A DNA stretch of 64,000 bases from positions 975,106 through 1,039,105 of the forward strand of contig NZ_LMHJ01000003.1 in NCBI RefSeq assembly GCF_001427795.1, in the 5' to 3' direction. The stretch is from Nocardioides sp. Root682 (GTDB taxonomy: Bacteria > Actinomycetota > Actinomycetes > Propionibacteriales > Nocardioidaceae). The notes beneath the pieces were generated by a model, which saw nothing but the letters and a program-made list of their open reading frames with translations, did not search any database and was not told the origin of the DNA. How positions within the stretch are numbered: the stretch's first letter is position 1; the number at the start of each line of letters is the position of its first letter. Shown here in pieces: positions 32,866 to 46,392 of the stretch. The position numbers and the translations under genes were made by a program.

Positions 32866-33615
32866 ATGCACCTGCACGACCACGAACACGCTGAGGATCA
32901 GGCGGCCGAGGCCGCACGCGCCAAGGTCGAGGGTCCCGACACCCTGACCATGAAGGCCGCCATGGCCGGTCGCCAGGACGTCATGGGCCGCAGCGGCGTG
33001 ATCGGTCTGCAGCGTGCCGCCGGCAACGCCGCGACCGCGCAGCTGATGGAGGACGAGGGCCCCTCCGTGCACGACGTCGTGTCCGGCAGTGGCAACGAGC
33101 TCGACACCGGCGTCCGCAAGGACATGGAGTCCCGGATGGGGCACGACTTCAGTGATGTCCGCGTCCACACGGGCGACAGCGCCGACGCGTCCGCGAAGTC
33201 GGTGAGTGCGCATGCCTACACCGTCGGCTCGAACATCGTCTTCCAGCGCGGGGCCTACGACCCGGAGTCCTCCGCCGGAAAGACCATGCTTGCCCACGAG
33301 CTCACGCACGTGGTGCAGCAGCGCAACGGACCGGTCGACGGAACCCCCGTCGGCGGCGGTGTCTCGGTCAGCGACCCGTCGGACAGGTTCGAGCGGGAAG
33401 CGTCCTCCAACGCAGAAGCGGTGATGGCCCAGCCCGTCCAGCGCCATGCCGAGGACGAGGACGTGCAGACCGCCCACGATTCAAGCCTCGGCCCCGTGGT
33501 GCAGCGCGAAGAGGAGGGCGAGGAGGAGGAGTCCGTCCAGGGCTCCCACGATTCCAGCCTCGGGTCGGTCGTGCAGCGCGAAGAAGAGGGCGAAGAAGAG
33601 GAAATGACCTCTTGA
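32866..33615 (+). CDS. DUF4157 (eCIS core domain) protein with HExxH motif
   Basis: A 249-residue protein. Near the N-terminus IGLQRAAGNAATAQLM matches a motif seen in many eCIS-linked proteins. The DUF4157 domain covers ~75-160 (GVRKDMESRMGHDFSDVRVH, SVSAHAYTVGSNIVF) and ends with the zinc-site motif HELTH at 144-148. The tail carries PVQRHAEDED and two 24-residue repeats, each with VVQREEEGEEEE. DUF4157 proteins are putative metallopeptidases that mark eCIS effectors or loading factors. The ATG at 32866 follows cctggagg. Its place between the ATPase and the sheath suggests a conserved structural or loading role. Confidence 0.9.
   Translation: MHLHDHEHAEDQAAEAARAKVEGPDTLTMKAAMAGRQDVMGRSGVIGLQRAAGNAATAQLMEDEGPSVHDVVSGSGNELDTGVRKDMESRMGHDFSDVRVHTGDSADASAKSVSAHAYTVGSNIVFQRGAYDPESSAGKTMLAHELTHVVQQRNGPVDGTPVGGGVSVSDPSDRFEREASSNAEAVMAQPVQRHAEDEDVQTAHDSSLGPVVQREEEGEEEESVQGSHDSSLGSVVQREEEGEEEEMTS
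33473..33609 (+). repeat. Two 72-bp tandem coding repeats in the DUF4157 gene tail
   Basis: Units start at 33473 and 33545 with CCCACGATTC; each encodes HDSSLG-x-VVQREEEGEEEE. The spacer has diverged (PVV versus SVV), so this is an old in-frame duplication. Confidence 0.85.
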
Positions 33616-33740: not shown

Positions 33741-35297
33741 ATGCCGAACTACCTCTCGCCCGGCGTCTACGTCGAGGAGATGCCGGCGGGGACACGGCCG
33801 ATCGAAGGTGTGGGGACCTCGGTCGCCGCATTCGTCGGTCTGGCTGCCAAGGGACCGGTCAATGAACCGACCCTGGTGTCCAATTGGTCGCAGTTCTCGG
33901 AGAACTTCGGAGATTTCGTCGAGAACTCCTACCTCGCCCATTCCGTGTACGGCTGGTTCCTCAACGGCGGAGGCAACTGCTTCGTCGTACGGATCGCGCC
34001 GAACAGCGGTCGCAAGGGCGGACCCAGCACACCGAAGGCCATTGCGGCCCCCAAGCAGGCCGCCCTCGGCGGCTACAACGTCACCTCCATCGCCAAGGGC
34101 GGGCAGGCCGACAAGTCGATCGAGCTGTCGGTCGAGCCGGCGAGTGGCGACAAGACTGCCGAGGGTGAGTTCAAGCTCGTCGTGAAGGTGGACGGAAAGC
34201 CCACCGAGACCTACGACAACGTGACCCACATGGCGTCGGACAACAACGTGGCCACGAAGGTCAACCTGTCGTCGAAGGTCATCAACTTCGAGGAGGCTTC
34301 CCAGGGCAGCGGGTTGCGCCCGATCAACCAGGGGAGTGTCGAGCTGGTCGAGCCCCAGACCGCACCGGTGCCACCGACGACCGAGAACCTCGGCGCCGGC
34401 GACTACGTCGGCGACGTGGCCCAGCGCACCGGGTTCGGTGGTCTCGAGGCCATCGACGAGGTCACCATGATCGCGGCGCCGGACCTGTCCGCTGCCCTCG
34501 AACAGGGTGCCATCGACCTCGACACCTTCAAGGCCGTGCAGCTGGGCATGATCGCCCACTGCGAGCTGATGGGTGACCGGATCGCGATCCTCGACACCCC
34601 GCCCGGGCTCAACGCCCAGCAGGTGCACCAGTGGCGCATGCACGACGCAGGCTACGACTCGAAGTTCGCGACCATGTACTGGCCGTGGGTCGAGGTCTTC
34701 GACCCTGCTGCCGGGGCCAACACGTTCGTACCGCCGTCGGGTCACATGGCCGGCATCTGGGCGCGCAGCGACAACACCCGGGGCGTGCACAAGGCGCCGG
34801 CCAACGAGGTCGTCCGCGGAGCCCTTCGGCTCCAGACCGCGATCACCAAGGCCGAGCACGACCTGCTCAACCCGGTCGGCATCAACTGCGTCCGCACGTT
34901 CCCGGGCCGCGGTGTCCGGGTGTGGGGAGCGCGGACACTGTCCAGCGAGGCGGAATGGCGGTACCTGAACGTCCGCCGGCTCTTCAACTACCTGGAGGAG
35001 TCGATCCTGATCGGCACCCAGTGGGTCGTCTTCGAACCGAACGACCCCGACCTGTGGGCACGGATCCGACGGACCATCTCCTCGTTCCTGGTCAACGAGT
35101 GGCGCAAGGGTGCCTTGTTCGGCACCACCCCTGACGAGGCGTTCTTCGTCAAGTGCGACGACGAGACCAATCCGTCCGAGGGCATCGACGCCGGTCAGGT
35201 CGTCTGCCAGATCGGCATCGCTCCTGTGAAGCCGGCCGAGTTCGTCATCTTCCAGCTGTCGCAGTTCTCCGGCGGCACCAGCCTCGTAGCAGAGTAG
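33741..35297 (+). CDS. eCIS sheath protein
   Basis: A 518-residue contractile sheath subunit of the phage-tail-sheath family. N-terminal signature: NYLSPGVYVEEMPAGTRPIEGVGTSVAAF in parts, typical of Pvc2/Afp2 and phage sheaths. The C-terminal core domain is conserved: LNPVGINCVRTFPGRGVRVW, RRLFNYLEESI, WVVFEPNDPDLWARIRRTI and the final interlocking strand VVCQIGIAPVKPAEFVIFQL. A good ribosome site (caggagg) precedes the ATG. Only one sheath gene is present, as in other simplified actinobacterial loci. Confidence 0.96.
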   Translation: MPNYLSPGVYVEEMPAGTRPIEGVGTSVAAFVGLAAKGPVNEPTLVSNWSQFSENFGDFVENSYLAHSVYGWFLNGGGNCFVVRIAPNSGRKGGPSTPKAIAAPKQAALGGYNVTSIAKGGQADKSIELSVEPASGDKTAEGEFKLVVKVDGKPTETYDNVTHMASDNNVATKVNLSSKVINFEEASQGSGLRPINQGSVELVEPQTAPVPPTTENLGAGDYVGDVAQRTGFGGLEAIDEVTMIAAPDLSAALEQGAIDLDTFKAVQLGMIAHCELMGDRIAILDTPPGLNAQQVHQWRMHDAGYDSKFATMYWPWVEVFDPAAGANTFVPPSGHMAGIWARSDNTRGVHKAPANEVVRGALRLQTAITKAEHDLLNPVGINCVRTFPGRGVRVWGARTLSSEAEWRYLNVRRLFNYLEESILIGTQWVVFEPNDPDLWARIRRTISSFLVNEWRKGALFGTTPDEAFFVKCDDETNPSEGIDAGQVVCQIGIAPVKPAEFVIFQLSQFSGGTSLVAE

Positions 35298-35310: not shown

Positions 35311-35757
35311 ATGGCACTTGCAGATGCCCTTGACTCCGCGCCAGCACACTCGTTCAAGGTCACGATCGACGGGATCCAGGTCCCGAAGGTCAACCAGGTC
35401 AGCGGGCTCAAGCAGGAGGTCGACAAGATCGAGCTCAAGCAGCAGACGAGCGACGGCAAGTACGTCGTCCGTCAGCTGATCGGTCGGCCCAAGCCCGGCG
35501 AGTTCACGGTCACTCGTGGTCTCACCGACTCGAAGACGGTCACGGACTGGCTCAAGTCGGTCAGCCAGGGTGACGTCGCCGGATCCCGGAAGACCGCATC
35601 GGTGGTGCTGCTCGACTACATGGGTGCGCCGATCAAGACGTACAGCTTCACGAACTGCTGGGTGCGCACCGTCGAGGTGAACGAGCTCAAGGCAGGTGCC
35701 GCCGAGCAGGCGACGGAGAAGTTCACGGTCTGCTTCGACGAAGTGACGGTGACCTGA
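35311..35757 (+). CDS. eCIS inner tube protein 1
   Basis: A 148-residue protein of the Hcp/phage-tail-tube (T4 gp19-like, Pvc1) family: HSFKVTIDGIQVPKVNQVSG, RQLIGRPKPGEFTVTRGLTD, and FTNCWVRTVEVNELKAGA, ending EKFTVCFDEVTV. It forms the rigid tube inside the sheath. It starts 13 bases after the sheath gene, and its stop overlaps the next start. Confidence 0.95.
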   Translation: MALADALDSAPAHSFKVTIDGIQVPKVNQVSGLKQEVDKIELKQQTSDGKYVVRQLIGRPKPGEFTVTRGLTDSKTVTDWLKSVSQGDVAGSRKTASVVLLDYMGAPIKTYSFTNCWVRTVEVNELKAGAAEQATEKFTVCFDEVTVT

Positions 35758-36203
35758 TGCAGCGGGGTCCCGCGCTCGCCGACGCCTCCCCGGAGATGTC
35801 GACGGACGTGCGCCCCGCGGCCCAGGAGGCACCGTTGCGCACGTCGTTCGACTTCGAGCTGCCCCGTGGTTTCGTCGACGGCAACGGGGTCACCCATCGT
35901 CAGGGGACGATGCGGCTCGCCACGGCACGCGACGAGCTGCTGCCGCTCTACGACGAGCGGGTCCAGGAGAACGCCGCGTTCACCACGGTGGTCCTGCTCG
36001 GCCGCGTGATCACCCGGCTCGGTGGCCTTCCCGTCGTCGACGCCAACGTCGTCGAGAACATGTTCGCCAGCGACGTGGCGTTCCTCCAGGACTTCTACCG
36101 GCGGATCAACGCCGAGGGCCACACCCGCGCTGCGGTCACCTGCCCCGAGTGCAGCCACCGGTTCGCGATCGACCTGTCGGGCGGGCGCCTGGGGGAATCG
36201 TGA
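35757..36203 (+). CDS. eCIS-associated small protein, tail-chaperone-like
   Basis: A 148-residue soluble protein (FDFELPRGFVDGNGVTHRQG ... LPLYDERVQENAAFTTVVLL) resembling phage tail-assembly proteins that sit just after the tube gene. It ends with a CPECSHRF motif, a partial zinc ribbon. It starts with ATG in the tube stop (TGATG) and its TGA overlaps the GTG of the next gene, which lies in the -1 frame. Chaperone or assembly function is inferred from position. Confidence 0.75.
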   Translation: MQRGPALADASPEMSTDVRPAAQEAPLRTSFDFELPRGFVDGNGVTHRQGTMRLATARDELLPLYDERVQENAAFTTVVLLGRVITRLGGLPVVDANVVENMFASDVAFLQDFYRRINAEGHTRAAVTCPECSHRFAIDLSGGRLGES

Positions 36204-36358
36204 CGTACGGGGCCGACCGTATCTACGCGGAAGTCTCGTACGTCGCCTACCACTTCCACTGGCCGCCGGACGCGATCCTCGACATGGAGCACGCCCAGCG
36301 GTTGCGGTACGTGCAGGAGATCGCCGCGATCAACAACCGGCTCAACGAGGAACGCTGA
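36200..36358 (+). CDS. Small eCIS protein (DUF6760-like)
   Basis: A 52-residue protein, TYGADRIYAEVSYVAYHFHW then PPDAILDMEHAQRLRYVQEI. It matches the short proteins found in many eCIS and contractile phage loci at this point. The frame is open ~50 bases upstream of the GTG in the -1 phase of the previous gene, so it could also be made as a frameshift extension, as in phage gpG/gpGT pairs. GTGA overlap gives simple coupling, which I prefer. Confidence 0.75.
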   Translation: MTYGADRIYAEVSYVAYHFHWPPDAILDMEHAQRLRYVQEIAAINNRLNEER

Positions 36359-36361
36359 GCG

Positions 36362-38797
36362 ATGGCCTGGTCATGGCCCTGGAGCCGGGACAAGGCTCCT
36401 CCGGAGTCGGCCGCCTCGGTGGCGCAGCCGCCAGCGACCCCTGCCCCCGCGGCCGCGCCCGCCCCCTCCCCGATGGGATGGGCCTTCCTGCCGCCCATCC
36501 AGCGCCAGCTCGCCGAGCCGATCCGGCCGCTGAGCCGCGGGTTCGAGCCGGGTGCCTGGGCCTCGCCGATGTTCACGGGCTCCATGACCCACGCGGTGGC
36601 GGATGGCGCTCCGCACGGACTGATCGACGGTGACGGCCGAGGACTGGGACTCCCCGTCCAGCGCACTGCCGCAGGACCCGAGCTCACGCTGCTCCCACCG
36701 CCCCGCCCGCGGGTCCAGCGCTCGATCCAGCGGGCCACCGACGAGGAGCTCGCGGAGCACGACGACGCGAGCTCCGAGACGCGCGAGCCGGAGGCCCGGT
36801 CGACCGGCGAATCCGCGACGGGCGACGGACCGGACGAGGGGGGAGCCGGCGGTGACGGTGGTACCGAGACGCCGCTGACGATCTCCCGCGCAGCCGAGAG
36901 CCGACTCCCCGTGGCGGTTCCCGAGCCGCCCCGGTCCCTCGTGCGCGCCAGCCCGGCCGGTCTGCCCTTCGTGCAGAGGTCCGCCGTCGCGGTGCCCGCG
37001 TCGACTCCCGGGCCATCCAGCGGGTCATCCAGTGAGTCGGCCAGCGGGTCATCCGCCACGCCTCCCGCGTCGTTGACCCCGGTGGCCCCGGACCGCCCCG
37101 CTGCGGACTCCCCGGTGTCCGCACGGCCGCCTGAAGTGACCGAGACGGGTCCGATCCTTCCGGACACCGCTGCCCTCGCGCCGGGATCGCCGGCCCCTGA
37201 GCCGCTGGGGGCCGCCGTCGCGCCCTCGCCCGTGCCGGGTGCGCCGGCCGGGTTGCCGGTGCAGCGGATGTCCTCCTCCGCTGCTGCGCCTGCCGCCGGT
37301 CGTGCCGTTGCGGGGGAGCGCCCGAGGCTCGGGTTCGGTCCGCCGCTGGAGCAGGTTCCCTCGACCGCCCAGAGTTCGCCCCCACCCGACGTGCCGGGGC
37401 CCGCGCTGCAGGCACAGCGCGCGGCCGCGGACGGATTCACCGAGGTCACGTTGCCGGGCGTCGCCGTCGCGGCGCCGAAGCAGCCACCGGCACCGGGCAT
37501 GCCGCTCCAACGGGCGAGCAGCCCGGACGCGTCGCCAATGGCGGCGCCGGCGGTTCAGGACGAGTCGTCCCCTGCAGCAGCGGACGAGGCCGTCCATCCG
37601 GACGACTGCGCCGACCCCGGCCACGGCCATCCGGCCGCCGCGCTGCCAGCAGCCGCGATCGCAGGGCCACCGGACGTCGTACCGACGCTGCAAACGGTGG
37701 TGCCTGAACCTCCGGTCTCGCCCATGATGCGCGGCGAGGTCGCGCCCCTGAACGTCGGTGGCCTCAGCACGTCCATCCAGCGCTCGAGCGTGCTGCCGGG
37801 CCTGGGCCTGCCGGTGCAGAAGCTGTCGGTGCGCCCGGCAGGACTCCCGGCCGCACCTTCCTCCCGCGTGGTCCGGGTGCAGCGCGTACCGTCCTCGATG
37901 TCGTCCCAGGCGTCCTCCGCCGGGCCCTCCACCTCGCCGACCTCGACGCCCTTCTCCGCTCAGTCCCCGGGGCCGTCGGCTGCTGTCGGAACCGCGACTC
38001 CGCCGCCCACCCCGATGGGCGCCACCCACGCCGCCACGTCCCCGACGCCGACGTCGACACCGACGCCGATGGGAGTCACGACGTCGATCCCCGCCCTCCA
38101 GCGGAGTACGACGCCCGGTGCGCCGGCCTCGTCCTTGCCCGTCGTGGAGCCGGTCGGCCACGAGGGTCTGCTCGACGCAGGCGCCGCTGCGGTGGCCGTC
38201 GAGTACTCCGCCGTCCCGCTCGAGTCCGGGTCAGGAATGAGCCGGGCCGGATCAGGTTGGACCGGGCCCAGCACCGCCGGTTCGAGCCCGGCCGGTTTCA
38301 TCGAGCTCGGCTCCAGTACTCCCGTCTCGAGTGACCTCGGCTCCGGCGTCGCCGTGTCGAACGACCTGGGTTCCGGTACCACCGGGTACGGCGGGTCGAA
38401 CGGGGCCGGTCCGGCCTCGTTCGTCCAGCGATCGTCAGCCGGCGTGGCCAGCGCTCCGGCGCTCCGGGCGACAGGCGTTCCGAGCGCTCCGCCCCTGGTC
38501 CTCCCGCAACGAGCGAGCGCGGCGGAGGTCGAGGCGGTGGAGTCCGCGACGATCCAGCGAGCAGAGGCCCCGGAGGTGCCGGAGCCCGAGCCCGCACCGC
38601 CTCCCGCCGAGGCGGCGGATGCCGGGTCGCCGGCCGCAGCTCCGCCCGCTGCTGCCCCGCCGGCTGCCGGGGGGCAGCAGTCGCCCGAGCAGGCCGAGGC
38701 CATGGCCCGTCAGCTGTTCCCGTCGCTGTTGCGGATGCTGCGCGGCGAGCTGATCGTCGACAGGGAACGGCGGGGGGTCCGTACCGACCGGTGGTGA
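36362..38797 (+). CDS. Large disordered eCIS protein with repeated QR motifs
   Basis: An 811-residue protein dominated by Pro, Ala, Ser, Gly and Val, predicted to be mostly disordered. It contains 14 Gln-Arg dipeptides, 12 preceded by Ile, Val or Leu (for example LPPIQRQL, GLPVQRT, RVQRSIQRA, PFVQRS, SFVQRSS), plus one LPVQKL. Short repeats (SDLGSG; TPMG) occur near residues 550-680. Only the last ~30 residues look folded and conserved: MARQLFPSLLRMLRGELIVD. It is three bases after the preceding gene and before the second tube. It may be a tape-measure-like or cargo-holding protein filling the tube; no family assignment is certain. Confidence 0.75.
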   Translation: MAWSWPWSRDKAPPESAASVAQPPATPAPAAAPAPSPMGWAFLPPIQRQLAEPIRPLSRGFEPGAWASPMFTGSMTHAVADGAPHGLIDGDGRGLGLPVQRTAAGPELTLLPPPRPRVQRSIQRATDEELAEHDDASSETREPEARSTGESATGDGPDEGGAGGDGGTETPLTISRAAESRLPVAVPEPPRSLVRASPAGLPFVQRSAVAVPASTPGPSSGSSSESASGSSATPPASLTPVAPDRPAADSPVSARPPEVTETGPILPDTAALAPGSPAPEPLGAAVAPSPVPGAPAGLPVQRMSSSAAAPAAGRAVAGERPRLGFGPPLEQVPSTAQSSPPPDVPGPALQAQRAAADGFTEVTLPGVAVAAPKQPPAPGMPLQRASSPDASPMAAPAVQDESSPAAADEAVHPDDCADPGHGHPAAALPAAAIAGPPDVVPTLQTVVPEPPVSPMMRGEVAPLNVGGLSTSIQRSSVLPGLGLPVQKLSVRPAGLPAAPSSRVVRVQRVPSSMSSQASSAGPSTSPTSTPFSAQSPGPSAAVGTATPPPTPMGATHAATSPTPTSTPTPMGVTTSIPALQRSTTPGAPASSLPVVEPVGHEGLLDAGAAAVAVEYSAVPLESGSGMSRAGSGWTGPSTAGSSPAGFIELGSSTPVSSDLGSGVAVSNDLGSGTTGYGGSNGAGPASFVQRSSAGVASAPALRATGVPSAPPLVLPQRASAAEVEAVESATIQRAEAPEVPEPEPAPPPAEAADAGSPAAAPPAAAPPAAGGQQSPEQAEAMARQLFPSLLRMLRGELIVDRERRGVRTDRW

Positions 38798-38866: not shown

Positions 38867-39304
38867 ATGAGCCAGCTGCAGGACGTCGACACCGCTGTCA
38901 GCGTCAGCTACAAGGTGAAGATCGACGGCCGGGAGCTCGGCGACTTCACCAGCTGCGAGGGCCTGGGCGTCGAGGTCGTCCTGGAGAGCCGCGAAGAGGG
39001 TGGCAACAACGGTTTCGTCTGGCAGTTCCCGTCCCGGTTGAAGTACTCGAACGTGAAGCTCTCGCGCCCGCTTGGCAAGCAGACCGAGCAGATCACGAAC
39101 TGGATCGGGGAGCTGGTGTCCGGCTACAAGCGCTACACCGCAACGATCGAGGCGCAGACGGCGAACGGCACGGTCGTGGCGAAGTGGTCGCTCAATGAAG
39201 TGATCCCGGTCCGCTGGACCGGGCCGCAGATGACGCCCGACCAGCCCAAGGTGTTGACCGAGACCCTCGAGATCGCCCACCACGGCTTCCTTCCGAGCGG
39301 CTGA
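38867..39304 (+). CDS. eCIS inner tube protein 2 (Pvc5-like)
   Basis: A 145-residue second tube paralogue: VSVSYKVKIDGRELGDFTSC, GFVWQFPSRLKYSNVKLSRP, AKWSLNEVIPVRWTGPQM, ending ETLEIAHHGFLP. In PVC/Afp the minor tube proteins form the layer joining the tube to the spike complex. Position directly before the LysM hub gene supports this role. Confidence 0.93.
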   Translation: MSQLQDVDTAVSVSYKVKIDGRELGDFTSCEGLGVEVVLESREEGGNNGFVWQFPSRLKYSNVKLSRPLGKQTEQITNWIGELVSGYKRYTATIEAQTANGTVVAKWSLNEVIPVRWTGPQMTPDQPKVLTETLEIAHHGFLPSG

Positions 39305-44523: not shown

Positions 44524-45094
44524 GCCGACCGCGACGAGTCACCGGGGCATGGTGCCCGGTCTGATCTCCCCGGCGCCGCTGGCCCAGCGGCTGCCCGGGG
44601 TGCTCCAGGACGACGACTTCCTGGTGCGTTTCGTGGGTGCCTTCGACGACGCGTACGCACCGATCCACGCGACGCTCGACTCGTTGGCCGCGTACTTCGA
44701 CCCGCAGCTGTCACCGGCGGACTTCCTCGGCTGGCTGGCCATGTGGGTCGGTGTCGAGCTCGACGACGCGTGGTCGACGGCCGACCGGCGCCGGATCATC
44801 ACCGACGCGGCGCGGCTGCACCGGCAGCGGGGGACCGTCGCCGGCATCCAGGCCGCGCTCGAGCAGGCCCTCGGTGCCGACGTGAGCGTCAGCGACACCG
44901 GTGCGTGCGACTGGTCGCAGAAGCCCGGCGCCGATCCCGGCGGCTCCGGTCCCCCCGCAGTCACGGTCACGGTGACCGTCCCCGATCCGGCCGCCGTCGA
45001 CGTACGACGGGTCGAGGCGCTGCTCGAGGACGTGTGTCCCGCACACGTGACCCGGCAGTACAAGGTCGTTGCTGCAGGAGGAGCGAAGAAATGA
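44516..45094 (+). CDS. eCIS phage tail protein I-like baseplate protein
   Basis: A 192-residue protein with the tail-protein-I signature: RFVGAFDDAYAPIHATLDSL, AAYFDPQLSPADFLGWLAMW, and RRIITDAARLHRQRGTVAGI. It takes the place of Pvc12 or of the T4 gp7-like partner of the J protein. GTG start, overlapping the J gene by eight bases and the next gene by four. Confidence 0.92.
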   Translation: MAEPTATSHRGMVPGLISPAPLAQRLPGVLQDDDFLVRFVGAFDDAYAPIHATLDSLAAYFDPQLSPADFLGWLAMWVGVELDDAWSTADRRRIITDAARLHRQRGTVAGIQAALEQALGADVSVSDTGACDWSQKPGADPGGSGPPAVTVTVTVPDPAAVDVRRVEALLEDVCPAHVTRQYKVVAAGGAKK

Positions 45095-46392
45095 GCCAGG
45101 CATGTCCGGTGTGCACCGCTGGTCTCGACGAGGGCGAGCGGTTCTGCGGTGAATGTGGCGCGTACGTCGACTGGTCCGACAACGCCCACGAGGAGCACGC
45201 CCCTGTTGCCGTCGAGCCCGATCCCGTGCCGGCCCCGGTCCCGGACCGCGGTCGGGTGCCGTCGACTCCGCCCCCGTCCGGCCCGCCGACTGGTCTGCCG
45301 ACCGGCCCGCCGCCGTCGGGACCGCCCCCGACGTCCGGGCCGCCGTCGCGTCCCGTGGCTCCGGTCGTGGTGCCGAAGGTGTCGACGGCCGAGCGGCCCG
45401 ACGAAGCACCGGCAGCCGCTGCCGTCGTACCGCCTCCGCCGCCGCCCTCCAAGCCCGGCGCGGAGTGGAAGCCCCCGCCGCCGCGCGACGCCCTCCAGGC
45501 GATGGTCGTCCCCGTCACGGAGAAACAGGCCGGACGCCAGCCCGGCGCACAACAGCCCGCGCCCCAGAAGCCCGGCACGCCGCTCGCCAAGCCCAAGCGG
45601 CCGCGGCCGCCGGTCGACGACCCGATCCAGCAGGGCGACCTGGTCTGCGGCAACTGCGGGATCGGCAACAAACCGACCCGGAAGTTCTGCCGCCGCTGCG
45701 GCACCACGCTCGCCGAGGCCGTGGTCGCCAAGCTGTCGTGGTGGCGGCGTTGGCGCAACAAGCGGCGCCTCCGCAAGGTCAAGCACGCGGGCGCCCGTCC
45801 GCGCGCCGCGCGCACGGGTCGCTTCCAGCTGCGCTTCCCGACGAGGCTGCTCACGATGCTGTTGATCCTGGGTGCGTTGAGCATTGGTGGCTACGCCTTC
45901 CGCGACGTCCTCGGCGGCATCTACGGCACGGCTCGCGACCGGATCGCCGGGACCGAGGAGGTCAACCCCACGGCGATCGAGGCGTCGAGCAGCCAGCGAG
46001 GCCACGGCCCCGAAGAAGCCCGCGACGGGGTGTCCAACGAGTACTGGGCGCCTGCCAAGGCCGGTGACGGCCGGGGCGAGAAGCTCAACCTCGAGTTCGA
46101 GGACCCGATCCGGCTGGTCTACGTCATCATCACGCCGGGGATCACCGCCGTGGACGAGGAGCTGTTCCTCACCCAGGGCCGCCCGAAGGAGATCAACGCG
46201 GTCGTGAAGCGCAGCGACGGCACGACCGAGATCAAGGAATTCAGGTTCGAGGACAAGCTCGGTCCGGCCAAGTTCAGCGTGGGCGTGAGCGACGTCGTCG
46301 ACATCACCTTCGAGATTCGCTCCGCCTACCAGGGCACTGCGGCGGGCAGTCACACCGCGATCGCGGAAGTGGAGTTCCAGGCCCGCAAGTGA
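45091..46392 (+). CDS. Zinc-ribbon, one-pass membrane protein with discoidin-like C-terminus; candidate eCIS membrane anchor
   Basis: A 433-residue protein. Zinc ribbon 1 uses Cys5, Cys8, Cys19 and Cys22. A long Pro-rich disordered stretch leads to ribbon 2 (Cys186, Cys189, Cys200, Cys203), a strongly basic segment (WWRRWRNKRRLRKVKH) and one membrane helix at ~250-270 (LLTMLLILGALSIGGYAF). The C-terminal ~140 residues look like a discoidin/F5-8 type beta domain (LNLEFEDPIRLVYVIITPG). Basic residues before the helix predict a cytoplasmic N-terminus and an external C-terminus. Position at the end of the structural operon and topology recall CisA, the membrane protein that docks the Streptomyces particle; orthology is unproven. 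Confidence 0.82.
   Translation: MSQACPVCTAGLDEGERFCGECGAYVDWSDNAHEEHAPVAVEPDPVPAPVPDRGRVPSTPPPSGPPTGLPTGPPPSGPPPTSGPPSRPVAPVVVPKVSTAERPDEAPAAAAVVPPPPPPSKPGAEWKPPPPRDALQAMVVPVTEKQAGRQPGAQQPAPQKPGTPLAKPKRPRPPVDDPIQQGDLVCGNCGIGNKPTRKFCRRCGTTLAEAVVAKLSWWRRWRNKRRLRKVKHAGARPRAARTGRFQLRFPTRLLTMLLILGALSIGGYAFRDVLGGIYGTARDRIAGTEEVNPTAIEASSSQRGHGPEEARDGVSNEYWAPAKAGDGRGEKLNLEFEDPIRLVYVIITPGITAVDEELFLTQGRPKEINAVVKRSDGTTEIKEFRFEDKLGPAKFSVGVSDVVDITFEIRSAYQGTAAGSHTAIAEVEFQARK

What the first reader, a model, noticed from the sequence alone, without database searches (positions are those of the whole stretch)
36362..38797. 811-residue disordered protein with 14 QR motifs inside the eCIS operon
Twelve of the 14 Gln-Arg pairs follow Ile, Val or Leu, and the same [VI]QR unit occurs in the DUF4157 protein of this locus and in the remote metallopeptidase-like protein. 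The protein is long, low in complexity and has one folded conserved end, as a tube-filling tape measure or a cargo scaffold might. The motif could be a docking site or a protease site.
Basis: partly seen in the sequence, partly recalled or inferred. Interest (0 to 1): 0.72.

Follow-up and report, generated by a model that had tools for sequence, protein, structure and literature searches.

The report
Evenly spaced QR-motif scaffold in injection operon
A long, floppy protein encoded inside a bacterial injection-machine operon carries a short three-letter motif at fairly even intervals, the same motif that flanks the machine's marker cargo domain, so it is probably a string on which cargo-carrying proteins are docked (or cut), although no experiment has yet shown that.

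Summary
In detail: 811 aa, 14 QR pairs (1.6 expected), 12 after I/V/L. AlphaFold gives one confident helix (775-803) and disorder elsewhere. The protein belongs to a conserved family, not named in the papers seen, that sits next to the tube initiator of actinobacterial contractile injection systems in 54 of 56 loci. Hydrophobic-Q-R ("psiQR") behaves as a short linear motif: against the nearest orthologue 28 of 28 QR residues are unchanged (11 synonymous, 0 nonsynonymous codon changes) inside a fast-changing region; 40 of 56 orthologues are enriched; motifs are more evenly spaced than chance in 20 of 36 and, in a second sample, 22 of 36 proteins. The same motif brackets the eCIS_core (DUF4157) domain. 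Scaffold and core tend to have it together (37/3/0/16; weaker with a psiQR-only criterion), but only three phylogenetically independent contrasts exist. Best reading: a disordered scaffold anchored at the tube initiator that docks core-domain adaptors or effectors at evenly spaced sites. Main rival: psiQR is a processing site of the core's zincin-like domain. Ruler function is neither shown nor excluded. Binding, cleavage and presence in particles are untested.

The parts
36362..38797 (+). 811-aa disordered psiQR scaffold ('tape-position' protein)
   Evidence: no Pfam family; AF2 pLDDT below 50 for 634 of 811 residues
36479..36691 (+). conserved N-terminal block (residues 40-110), holds the first psiQR at a near-fixed place (LPPIQR)
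36497..38560 (+). stretch with the 14 QR motifs (Q at residues 47, 100, 119, 123, 205, 301, 352, 383, 473, 507, 580, 689, 716, 732)
   Evidence: 28 of 28 QR residues unchanged in the nearest orthologue; spacing of the 12 psiQR more even than chance, p 0.02
38672..38794 (+). conserved C-terminal domain (residues 771-811) with helix 775-803; used as the family's search handle
   Evidence: a profile of it matches 164 of 343 genomes of the genus of G634
32866..33615 (+). small eCIS_core (DUF4157) protein, HELTH at residues 144-148; proposed partner
   Evidence: PF13699 E 1e-33; only match in the genome; AF2 model and comparison with known folds
33007..33015 (+). LQR in the 'LQRAAGN' stretch before the core domain
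   Evidence: R50 invariant in 27 aligned cores
33436..33579 (+). acidic tail of the core protein with three VQR motifs (33436-33444, 33499-33507, 33571-33579)
36149..36358 (+). open frame of the DUF6760 protein, immediate upstream neighbour
   Evidence: PF20546 E 1e-12
38867..39304 (+). second tube protein (tube initiator, Afp5/Cis1b type), immediate downstream neighbour
   Evidence: PF06841 E 1.5e-25
35311..35757 (+). inner tube protein
   Evidence: PF06841 E 2e-27
33741..35297 (+). contractile sheath
   Evidence: PF04984/PF17482
29790..32755 (+). cap protein (Pvc16_N) and AAA+ ATPase (Cis15 type)
   Evidence: PF14065, PF00004
39315..45094 (+). CIS_tube+LysM hub, VgrG spike, PAAR, gp25, baseplate J, Tail_P2_I

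Best explanation
The protein is a disordered cargo scaffold of the actinobacterial contractile injection system. Its conserved C-terminal helix anchors it at the tube initiator/hub end of the tube, and its long chain runs into the tube lumen. Along the chain, [VIL]-Q-R motifs typically 60-90 residues apart each dock one eCIS_core (DUF4157) protein. That protein is a small adaptor (here 32866-33615) or, in related genomes, an effector fused to the same domain. The scaffold therefore sets how many core proteins, and whatever they carry, are loaded and where. Shown here: disorder (predicted), two conserved ends, synteny, motif enrichment, purifying selection on QR, even spacing in more than half of the proteins tested, and the same motif flanking the core domain. 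Inferred: location in the lumen, anchoring by the helix, binding of the core domain to psiQR, and one partner per motif.
For: Synteny: the next labelled gene downstream is the tube initiator in 54 of 56 loci and the next one upstream is DUF6760 in 49 of 56; in 6 of the other 7 no labelled gene lies upstream in the fetched stretch. Motif: VQR seen 324 times against 7.7 expected over 39 enriched orthologues; in a second set 38 of 38 proteins of 598 aa or more have psiQR at p<=0.013 (300 shuffles). Selection: QR residues 28 of 28 identical with 11 synonymous and 0 nonsynonymous changes, against 240 nonsynonymous/168 synonymous in the rest of the disordered part (Fisher 7e-5 for the ratio, 2e-6 for change per aligned site). 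Even spacing: 20 of 36 at p<=0.05, 13 of 20 after dropping proteins with similar neighbouring segments; 22 of 36 in the second set, against 9 of 98 protein-pattern tests for five control patterns. Even spacing is what steric room for a bound partner would give. Shared motif: of 111 core ORFs none has psiQR inside the domain, 100 have it before and 98 within 70 aa after it; 66 of 80 core ORFs of a wider sample, which shares a few genomes with the first, are psiQR-enriched at p<=0.02. Co-variation: 37 QR+ with a psiQR-bearing core, 3 QR+ without, 0 QR- with, 16 QR- without. A nested pair (L021, L033; L024 not in the tree) lacks both core and motif while its neighbours L028 and L036 have both, although the L028 core lies elsewhere in its genome and the L036 core has few psiQR. 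Published: a small DUF4157 protein of S. lividans (Sle2) co-elutes with the tube initiator and with the N-terminal part of an effector (PMC13277306, section 5 read), and DUF4157 cargos fill the tube lumen in AlgoCIS (PMC8894135, passages).
Against: No binding is measured. Co-variation is weaker than the table looks. With psiQR instead of QR as criterion it becomes 37/5/0/14 at p<=0.01 and 37/9/0/10 at p<=0.05, because L096, L100, L101, L127, L129 and L130 keep two or three psiQR; this made me lower the odds a little. On the VgrG tree it rests on three independent pairs (1.7 agree on average, none disagree, 1.3 show no difference), which cannot reach significance. Two QR+ loci (L121, L128) lie in genomes without any PF13699 match (G417, G911). 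Cores with an intact HELTH but no psiQR exist (L096, L100, L101, L102, and L134 of the genome of L099). Sixteen and fourteen of 36 scaffolds are not significantly even, and the arrays of L026 and L027 are clustered. AlphaFold did not place the core's own VQR tail on its domain. In S. coelicolor, deleting three effectors leaves about 85% of tubes looking empty (PMC10066040, passages), which speaks against a bulky lumen-filling scaffold there, if that species has one (not checked). The passages read on mass spectrometry of S. coelicolor particles name sco4242, sco4251 and sco4256 as the unknown proteins found; I could not check whether any is of this family (PMC10020575).
Confidence: 0.42

Rival explanations
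1. psiQR is a processing site: the eCIS_core domain is a small gluzincin-like metallopeptidase that cuts at psiQR, freeing itself and its fused effector in cis and trimming the scaffold into pieces in trans. A cut N-terminal to the hydrophobic residue would suit the P1' preference of gluzincins (recalled, from no call).
For: HExxH plus a later invariant Glu (H144, E145, H148, E176) in 27 aligned cores. In the fold comparison of the AF2 core most of the top rows are zinc peptidases, Z up to 7.3 over 100 residues, and abylysin is Foldseek rank 1 at a weak E 0.29. psiQR sits on both sides of the domain and at the core-effector junction: in 49 fusions 18.1 motifs per 1000 aa in the first 70 aa after the domain against 0.53 further on.
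Against: Cut sites need not be evenly spaced, but these tend to be. HELTH is kept in cores without psiQR. Full-length Tme, a DUF4157 protein, is reported as a band above 220 kDa (PMC11126660, legend). Cgo1's effect on E. coli is reported independent of the metalloprotease motifs (PMC8894135).
Confidence: 0.25
2. The protein is the missing ruler: a lumen-spanning tape measure whose psiQR arginines bind the acidic tube wall, with no need of a partner protein.
For: It sits beside the tube initiator. Three papers say that a (typical) tape-measure gene is absent from Streptomyces clusters (PMC10066040, PMC12237407, PMC10286715), one of them with particles all of one length. The tube lumen is reported negatively charged (PMC8894135).
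Against: Open-frame length varies widely, also among near relatives (805, 965, 870, 876 aa in L023, L025, L026, L027). No coiled coil in the model. Net charge of many scaffolds is negative (window -23). In one clade the motif is missing together with the core protein although the tube stays.
Confidence: 0.12
3. psiQR is the handle that the AAA+ ATPase (Cis15) grips to load cargo into the tube.
For: The ATPase is in this operon; effectors are loaded with its help in PVC (PMC11495950, start of the abstract in a search listing only).
Against: Loci with the ATPase have scaffolds with no or only two psiQR (L021, L024, L033, L102 none; L096, L100, L101 two). The loading signal described in the passages read is N-terminal (PMC11297309).
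Confidence: 0.08
4. Low-complexity drift: tandem duplication of GC-rich repeats multiplied a meaningless tripeptide.
For: Some orthologues have visible tandem units that contain the motif (L026, L027, L028), and neighbouring segments are similar in part of the proteins.
Against: 0 nonsynonymous and 11 synonymous changes at QR in a region that otherwise changes freely; enrichment and even spacing also in proteins without similar segments.
Confidence: 0.03

Closest known systems
Tme of Streptomyces davawensis CIS (tape-measure-related effector; PMC11126660, passages)
   Same: Very long, largely disordered protein encoded just upstream of the baseplate genes of an actinobacterial CIS; associated with spike and tube-initiator proteins.
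   Different: Tme has an N-terminal DUF4157 domain, predicted transmembrane helices, coiled coils and a C-terminal nuclease; the window protein showed no such domain and ends in a conserved helix. Relatives with an embedded core domain (L030, L032, L103, L111, L122) may bridge the two.
Sle1/Sle2 of S. lividans (PMC13277306, section 5 and passages)
   Same: A small DUF4157 protein next to the sheath gene is proposed to link the tube initiator to a tape-measure-like cargo.
   Different: Sle1 has a coiled-coil N-terminus and lies upstream of the structural genes in reverse direction; no psiQR motif is described in what I read.
Afp14/Cis14 tape measure proteins
   Same: Long non-globular protein in the tail operon, candidate for the tube lumen.
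   Different: No Pfam match, no coiled coil in the model, variable length; ruler function untested.
eCIS_core (DUF4157, PF13699) proteins and fused effectors
   Same: Carry the same psiQR motif, on both sides of the core domain.
   Different: The window scaffold has no core domain; it carries the motif only.

Membership tests
Tme-like CIS effectors | DUF4157 domain in the N-terminal region | tested here: not met
   No Pfam family in P0001; the genome's one PF13699 match is the separate 32866-33615 protein
Tme-like CIS effectors | long ORF placed directly upstream of the tube initiator/baseplate genes | tested here: met
Tme-like CIS effectors | C-terminal toxin/nuclease domain | tested here: not met
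   C-terminus is a single helix in the model, no Pfam family
Tape measure proteins | protein length sets particle length | not testable with these tools
   no particle lengths for these species; needs internal deletions
Tape measure proteins | helical/coiled-coil rod | tested here: not met
   AF2 shows one helix of 29 residues and 634 of 811 residues below pLDDT 50; a disordered tape is not excluded
Short-linear-motif scaffold | motif enriched beyond composition and conserved inside a fast-changing disordered region | tested here: met
Short-linear-motif scaffold | a partner binds the motif | not testable with these tools
   only indirect: co-variation with the core protein, three independent contrasts
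Gluzincin-type metallopeptidase (for the core protein) | HExxH plus a conserved downstream Glu | tested here: met
   H144, E145, H148 and E176 invariant in 27 aligned cores; that E176 binds metal is inferred
Gluzincin-type metallopeptidase (for the core protein) | zincin-like fold | tested here: inconclusive
   AF2 model; Foldseek best E 0.29, VIA-align Z up to 7.3, mostly zinc peptidases at the top, but such Z values can mean only a common arrangement
Gluzincin-type metallopeptidase (for the core protein) | peptidase activity, cleavage at psiQR | not testable with these tools
   needs purified protein

The most novel reading that the evidence does not exclude
psiQR is a general address code of eCIS cargo: the same three-residue motif marks the disordered scaffold, the DUF4157 adaptor and the effector junctions in more than one phylum, and the scaffold of actinobacterial systems reported to lack a tape measure is a beads-on-a-string loader that fixes cargo number (and possibly tube length) by evenly spaced sites.
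Probability: 0.24. Interest if true: 0.87.

Novelty: new variant of a known kind. Interest (0 to 1): 0.7.

Why it matters
The C-terminal domain of this protein was found in 164 of 343 genomes of a genus that I take to be Streptomyces, yet papers on Streptomyces systems report no typical tape-measure gene, and those read leave length control open. A conserved component beside the tube initiator, with an evenly spaced motif that also flanks the eCIS marker domain, would link scaffold, adaptor and effectors by one simple rule that a peptide-binding or cleavage assay can test. It would also give DUF4157, whose function is called elusive (PMC11297309, passages), a defined job: binding, or cutting, psiQR.

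Tried and rejected
Whole-protein search of genome contigs with P0001 found no relative, presumably because the disordered part diverges too fast; the 40-aa C-terminus worked. PDB sequence searches of the scaffold and of the core profile gave nothing useful. L031 (hit at E 9e-4) was dropped from all counts as spurious: no CIS gene was labelled around it. Eight further places were not fetched (G508:C13, G548, G500, G601, G499, two of G477, G698; several are contig ends). A ruler reading through conserved length was considered and is not supported by the length spread. Charge binding to the lumen was considered: net charge has no consistent sign. A psiAR variant in QR-poor systems was tested: p 0.001-0.004 in L100, L101 and L024, above 0.05 in L096, L099, L102, L021 and L033; one or two psiAR of each such protein lie in the C-terminal domain. 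The AF2 core model was meant to show the VQR tail docking in cis: the tail stayed disordered. Searching the 38 genomes of one genus for more co-loss events added none. Viral-contig DUF4157 proteins (8 loci) were read for the motif but not counted statistically.

Choices in the co-variation table: states were set by hand from QR enrichment at p<=0.01. L105 was counted QR+ from the frame with 13 psiQR. When no core lay in the fetched stretch, a core elsewhere in the genome was used. The cores of L036, L117 and L123 have only two psiQR each and were coded present; the core of L127 has one and was coded absent; L030 was coded absent although its genome has a psiQR-bearing core in another system. 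L024 is missing from the tree (no VgrG in the stretch). The spacing tests used only proteins with five or more psiQR: 36 of the 40 QR+ (L105 and three with fewer left out) and 36 of 38 in the second set. Lengths are stop-to-stop open frames.
Full report
What is there. The ORF at 36362-38797 (+) encodes 811 residues and lies in a contractile injection system operon: cap (Pvc16_N), AAA+ ATPase, eCIS_core (DUF4157) protein, sheath, tube, a 148-residue protein with a CPEC knuckle, DUF6760 protein, the 811-residue protein, second tube protein (tube initiator), CIS_tube+LysM hub, VgrG, PAAR, gp25, baseplate J, Tail_P2_I, and a zinc-ribbon/NADase_transloc protein. No tape-measure or fibre family was matched among the 20 ORFs scanned. 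Fourteen QR pairs are present against 1.6 expected; none of 2000 shuffles reached that number; 12 follow I, V or L, and their codons vary. AlphaFold2 with 23 homologues gives one helix, 775-803, at pLDDT about 90 over most of it, and disorder for most of the rest.

The family. The C-terminal 40 residues matched in 17 of 293 genomes of the order, the window's own included (18 places, of which L031 is spurious), and a profile of them in 37 of 394 genomes of the class and 15 of 296 of the phylum (overlapping samples, the window genome included). In the genus of G634, 164 of 343 genomes match. I fetched stretches of up to 20 kb around 55 places and added the window: 56 loci. By stop position the next labelled gene downstream is the tube initiator in 54 of 56, and the next one upstream is DUF6760 in 49 of 56; six of the other seven have no labelled gene upstream in the stretch. 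Open frames are 447-1633 aa (the two shortest are the compact core fusions L129 and L130) and up to 1895 aa in a further set.

The motif is selected. Against the closest orthologue (L020, 64% identity) all 14 motifs align; 28 of 28 Q and R are identical with 11 synonymous and no nonsynonymous codon changes. In the remaining disordered region (610 aligned sites, 81 gapped) there are 240 nonsynonymous and 168 synonymous changes (Fisher 2e-6 and 7e-5). Other Q and R in the same region change more (7 of 29; p 0.01). The preceding residue changes in 5 of 14, four times within V/I/L and once to A, and a VQK in the window is LQR in the orthologue. Across 56 loci, 39 are QR-enriched at p<=0.01 and L105 becomes the fortieth once its N-terminal frame is read. 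VQR occurs 324 times against 7.7 expected in the 39. In a second set of 40 places of the genus of G634, 38 proteins of 598 aa or more all have psiQR at p<=0.013; two short fragments (188 and 64 aa) do not. Six proteins coded QR- still keep two or three psiQR at p<=0.05.

The motifs tend to be evenly spaced. For each scaffold with at least five psiQR I compared the variation of gaps with random placement between the first and last motif. In the first set 20 of 36 proteins are more even than 95% of placements (combined p 2e-22); without proteins showing similar neighbouring segments it is 13 of 20 (combined p 8e-13). In the second set it is 22 of 36 (combined p 7e-24), whereas five other short patterns, tested where they occur 6 to 40 times in a protein, give 9 of 98. 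The combined p values treat related proteins as independent and are too small for that reason. The median of the mean gaps is 66 residues in the first set (quartiles 58-89) and 79 in the second; in the window the mean is 62. Some are clustered instead (L026, L027, L275).

The motif belongs with the core domain. In 111 eCIS_core ORFs (E<=1e-20, length up to 1300 aa) no domain contains psiQR; 100 have it before the domain and 98 within 70 residues after it. In the 49 with long C-terminal parts the density falls from 18.1 to 0.53 per 1000 residues beyond that junction. In 80 core loci of named genomes, a few of them the same genomes, 66 core ORFs are psiQR-enriched at p<=0.02, among them the three from records labelled Chloroflexi. 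Core proteins on viral contigs also show psiQR near the domain in most of those printed (by eye, not tested). In the first set, systems whose core lacks psiQR have scaffolds with no or two psiQR (L096, L100-L102, and L099 with L134). Four scaffolds in genomes without a core, or with only a divergent core on another contig, have no QR at all (L021, L022, L033, L024), but two others in genomes without a PF13699 match are enriched (L121, L128). Of seven scaffolds with an embedded core domain six are not QR-enriched. The table is 37/3/0/16 (Fisher 2e-11); by psiQR it is 37/5/0/14 at p<=0.01 or 37/9/0/10 at p<=0.05. The tree of VgrG needs only 4 and 3 changes and offers three independent pairs, of which 1.7 on average agree and none disagree. 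This is suggestive, not proof.

What the core is. AlphaFold2 models the window core with high confidence over most of residues 70-190 and with disordered ends. Compared with known folds, most of the top rows are zinc peptidases (Foldseek rank 1 abylysin at E 0.29; VIA-align Z up to 7.3), middling values that may mean only a common arrangement and show no activity. HELTH and a downstream glutamate are invariant in 27 cores.

Mechanism. I favour docking over cutting because the sites tend to be evenly spaced, because a small DUF4157 protein is reported to co-elute with the tube initiator and with an effector's N-terminal region (PMC13277306, section 5 read), and because full-length Tme is reported on blots (PMC11126660, legend). 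Cutting remains strong because psiQR brackets an apparently intact zincin-like domain and marks the junction to the effector. Both could be true: binding in the zincin groove would be a step of either. The N-terminus (MAWSWPWSRDK) resembles the eCIS loading signal described as aromatic or heavy in the first eight residues, then slightly positive and disordered (PMC11297309, passages), which fits a loaded protein; I did not run that classifier.

Against known systems. It is not a Tme-like effector by that group's definition (no DUF4157 domain) and not a demonstrated tape measure. Three papers state that a (typical) tape-measure gene is missing from Streptomyces clusters (PMC10066040, PMC12237407, PMC10286715), and I saw no description of this protein or motif in what I read. 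The searches made were made; a search for DUF4157 with 'linear motif' returned no paper. The library lacks most subscription journals and preprints. Ten papers were opened, as passages found by term; section 5 of PMC13277306 and section 6 of PMC12237407 were read whole; PMC11495950 was seen only in search listings.

Verdict. A real, selected, repeated and often evenly spaced motif in a conserved CIS component; docking scaffold most likely (0.42, lowered from 0.45 after the psiQR recount), processing substrate second (0.25). Ruler function is open.

Noticed in passing
45091-46392 (+): Zinc-ribbon protein with a proline-rich middle, a hydrophobic stretch and an NADase_transloc (F5/8 type C) end, just downstream of the baseplate genes, where S. 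coelicolor encodes the membrane protein CisA.
   Followed up: no
35757-36203 (+): 148-aa protein ending in a CPEC knuckle; a relative is labelled in 50 of 56 fetched loci; only sub-threshold Pfam matches.
   Followed up: no
L105 (G634): The scaffold's C-terminal domain lies in another reading frame than its N-terminus and motif region. In one search other genomes show the C-terminal domain in short open frames; some are contig ends (L277), one is not (L276, 188 aa in an 8.66-Mb contig). Sequencing error, decay or recoding not resolved.
   Followed up: partly
L129, L130: Compact open frames of 496 and 447 aa that join an eCIS_core domain to the scaffold's C-terminal helix, in genomes of about 2 Mb; both may be cut by contig ends.
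   Followed up: no
L231, L232, L236, L237 (viral contigs): In these DUF4157 proteins a 'GDxxEQEADxxAxxVM'-like element precedes the HExxH domain, while in actinobacterial cores the similar 'SDPSDRFEREA' follows it: looks like a circular permutation or swapped element (by eye).
   Followed up: no
L101:1474-2463, L102:2473-4338, L106:2-1099: Open frames next to the CIS genes without a detected core domain but with a 'GN.A' stretch and VQR motifs: candidate cargos found by motif alone.
   Followed up: no
G046 (L026 and L030): One genome carries two CIS loci of different type: one with psiQR scaffold and separate core, one with the core domain embedded in a psiQR-poor scaffold.
   Followed up: partly
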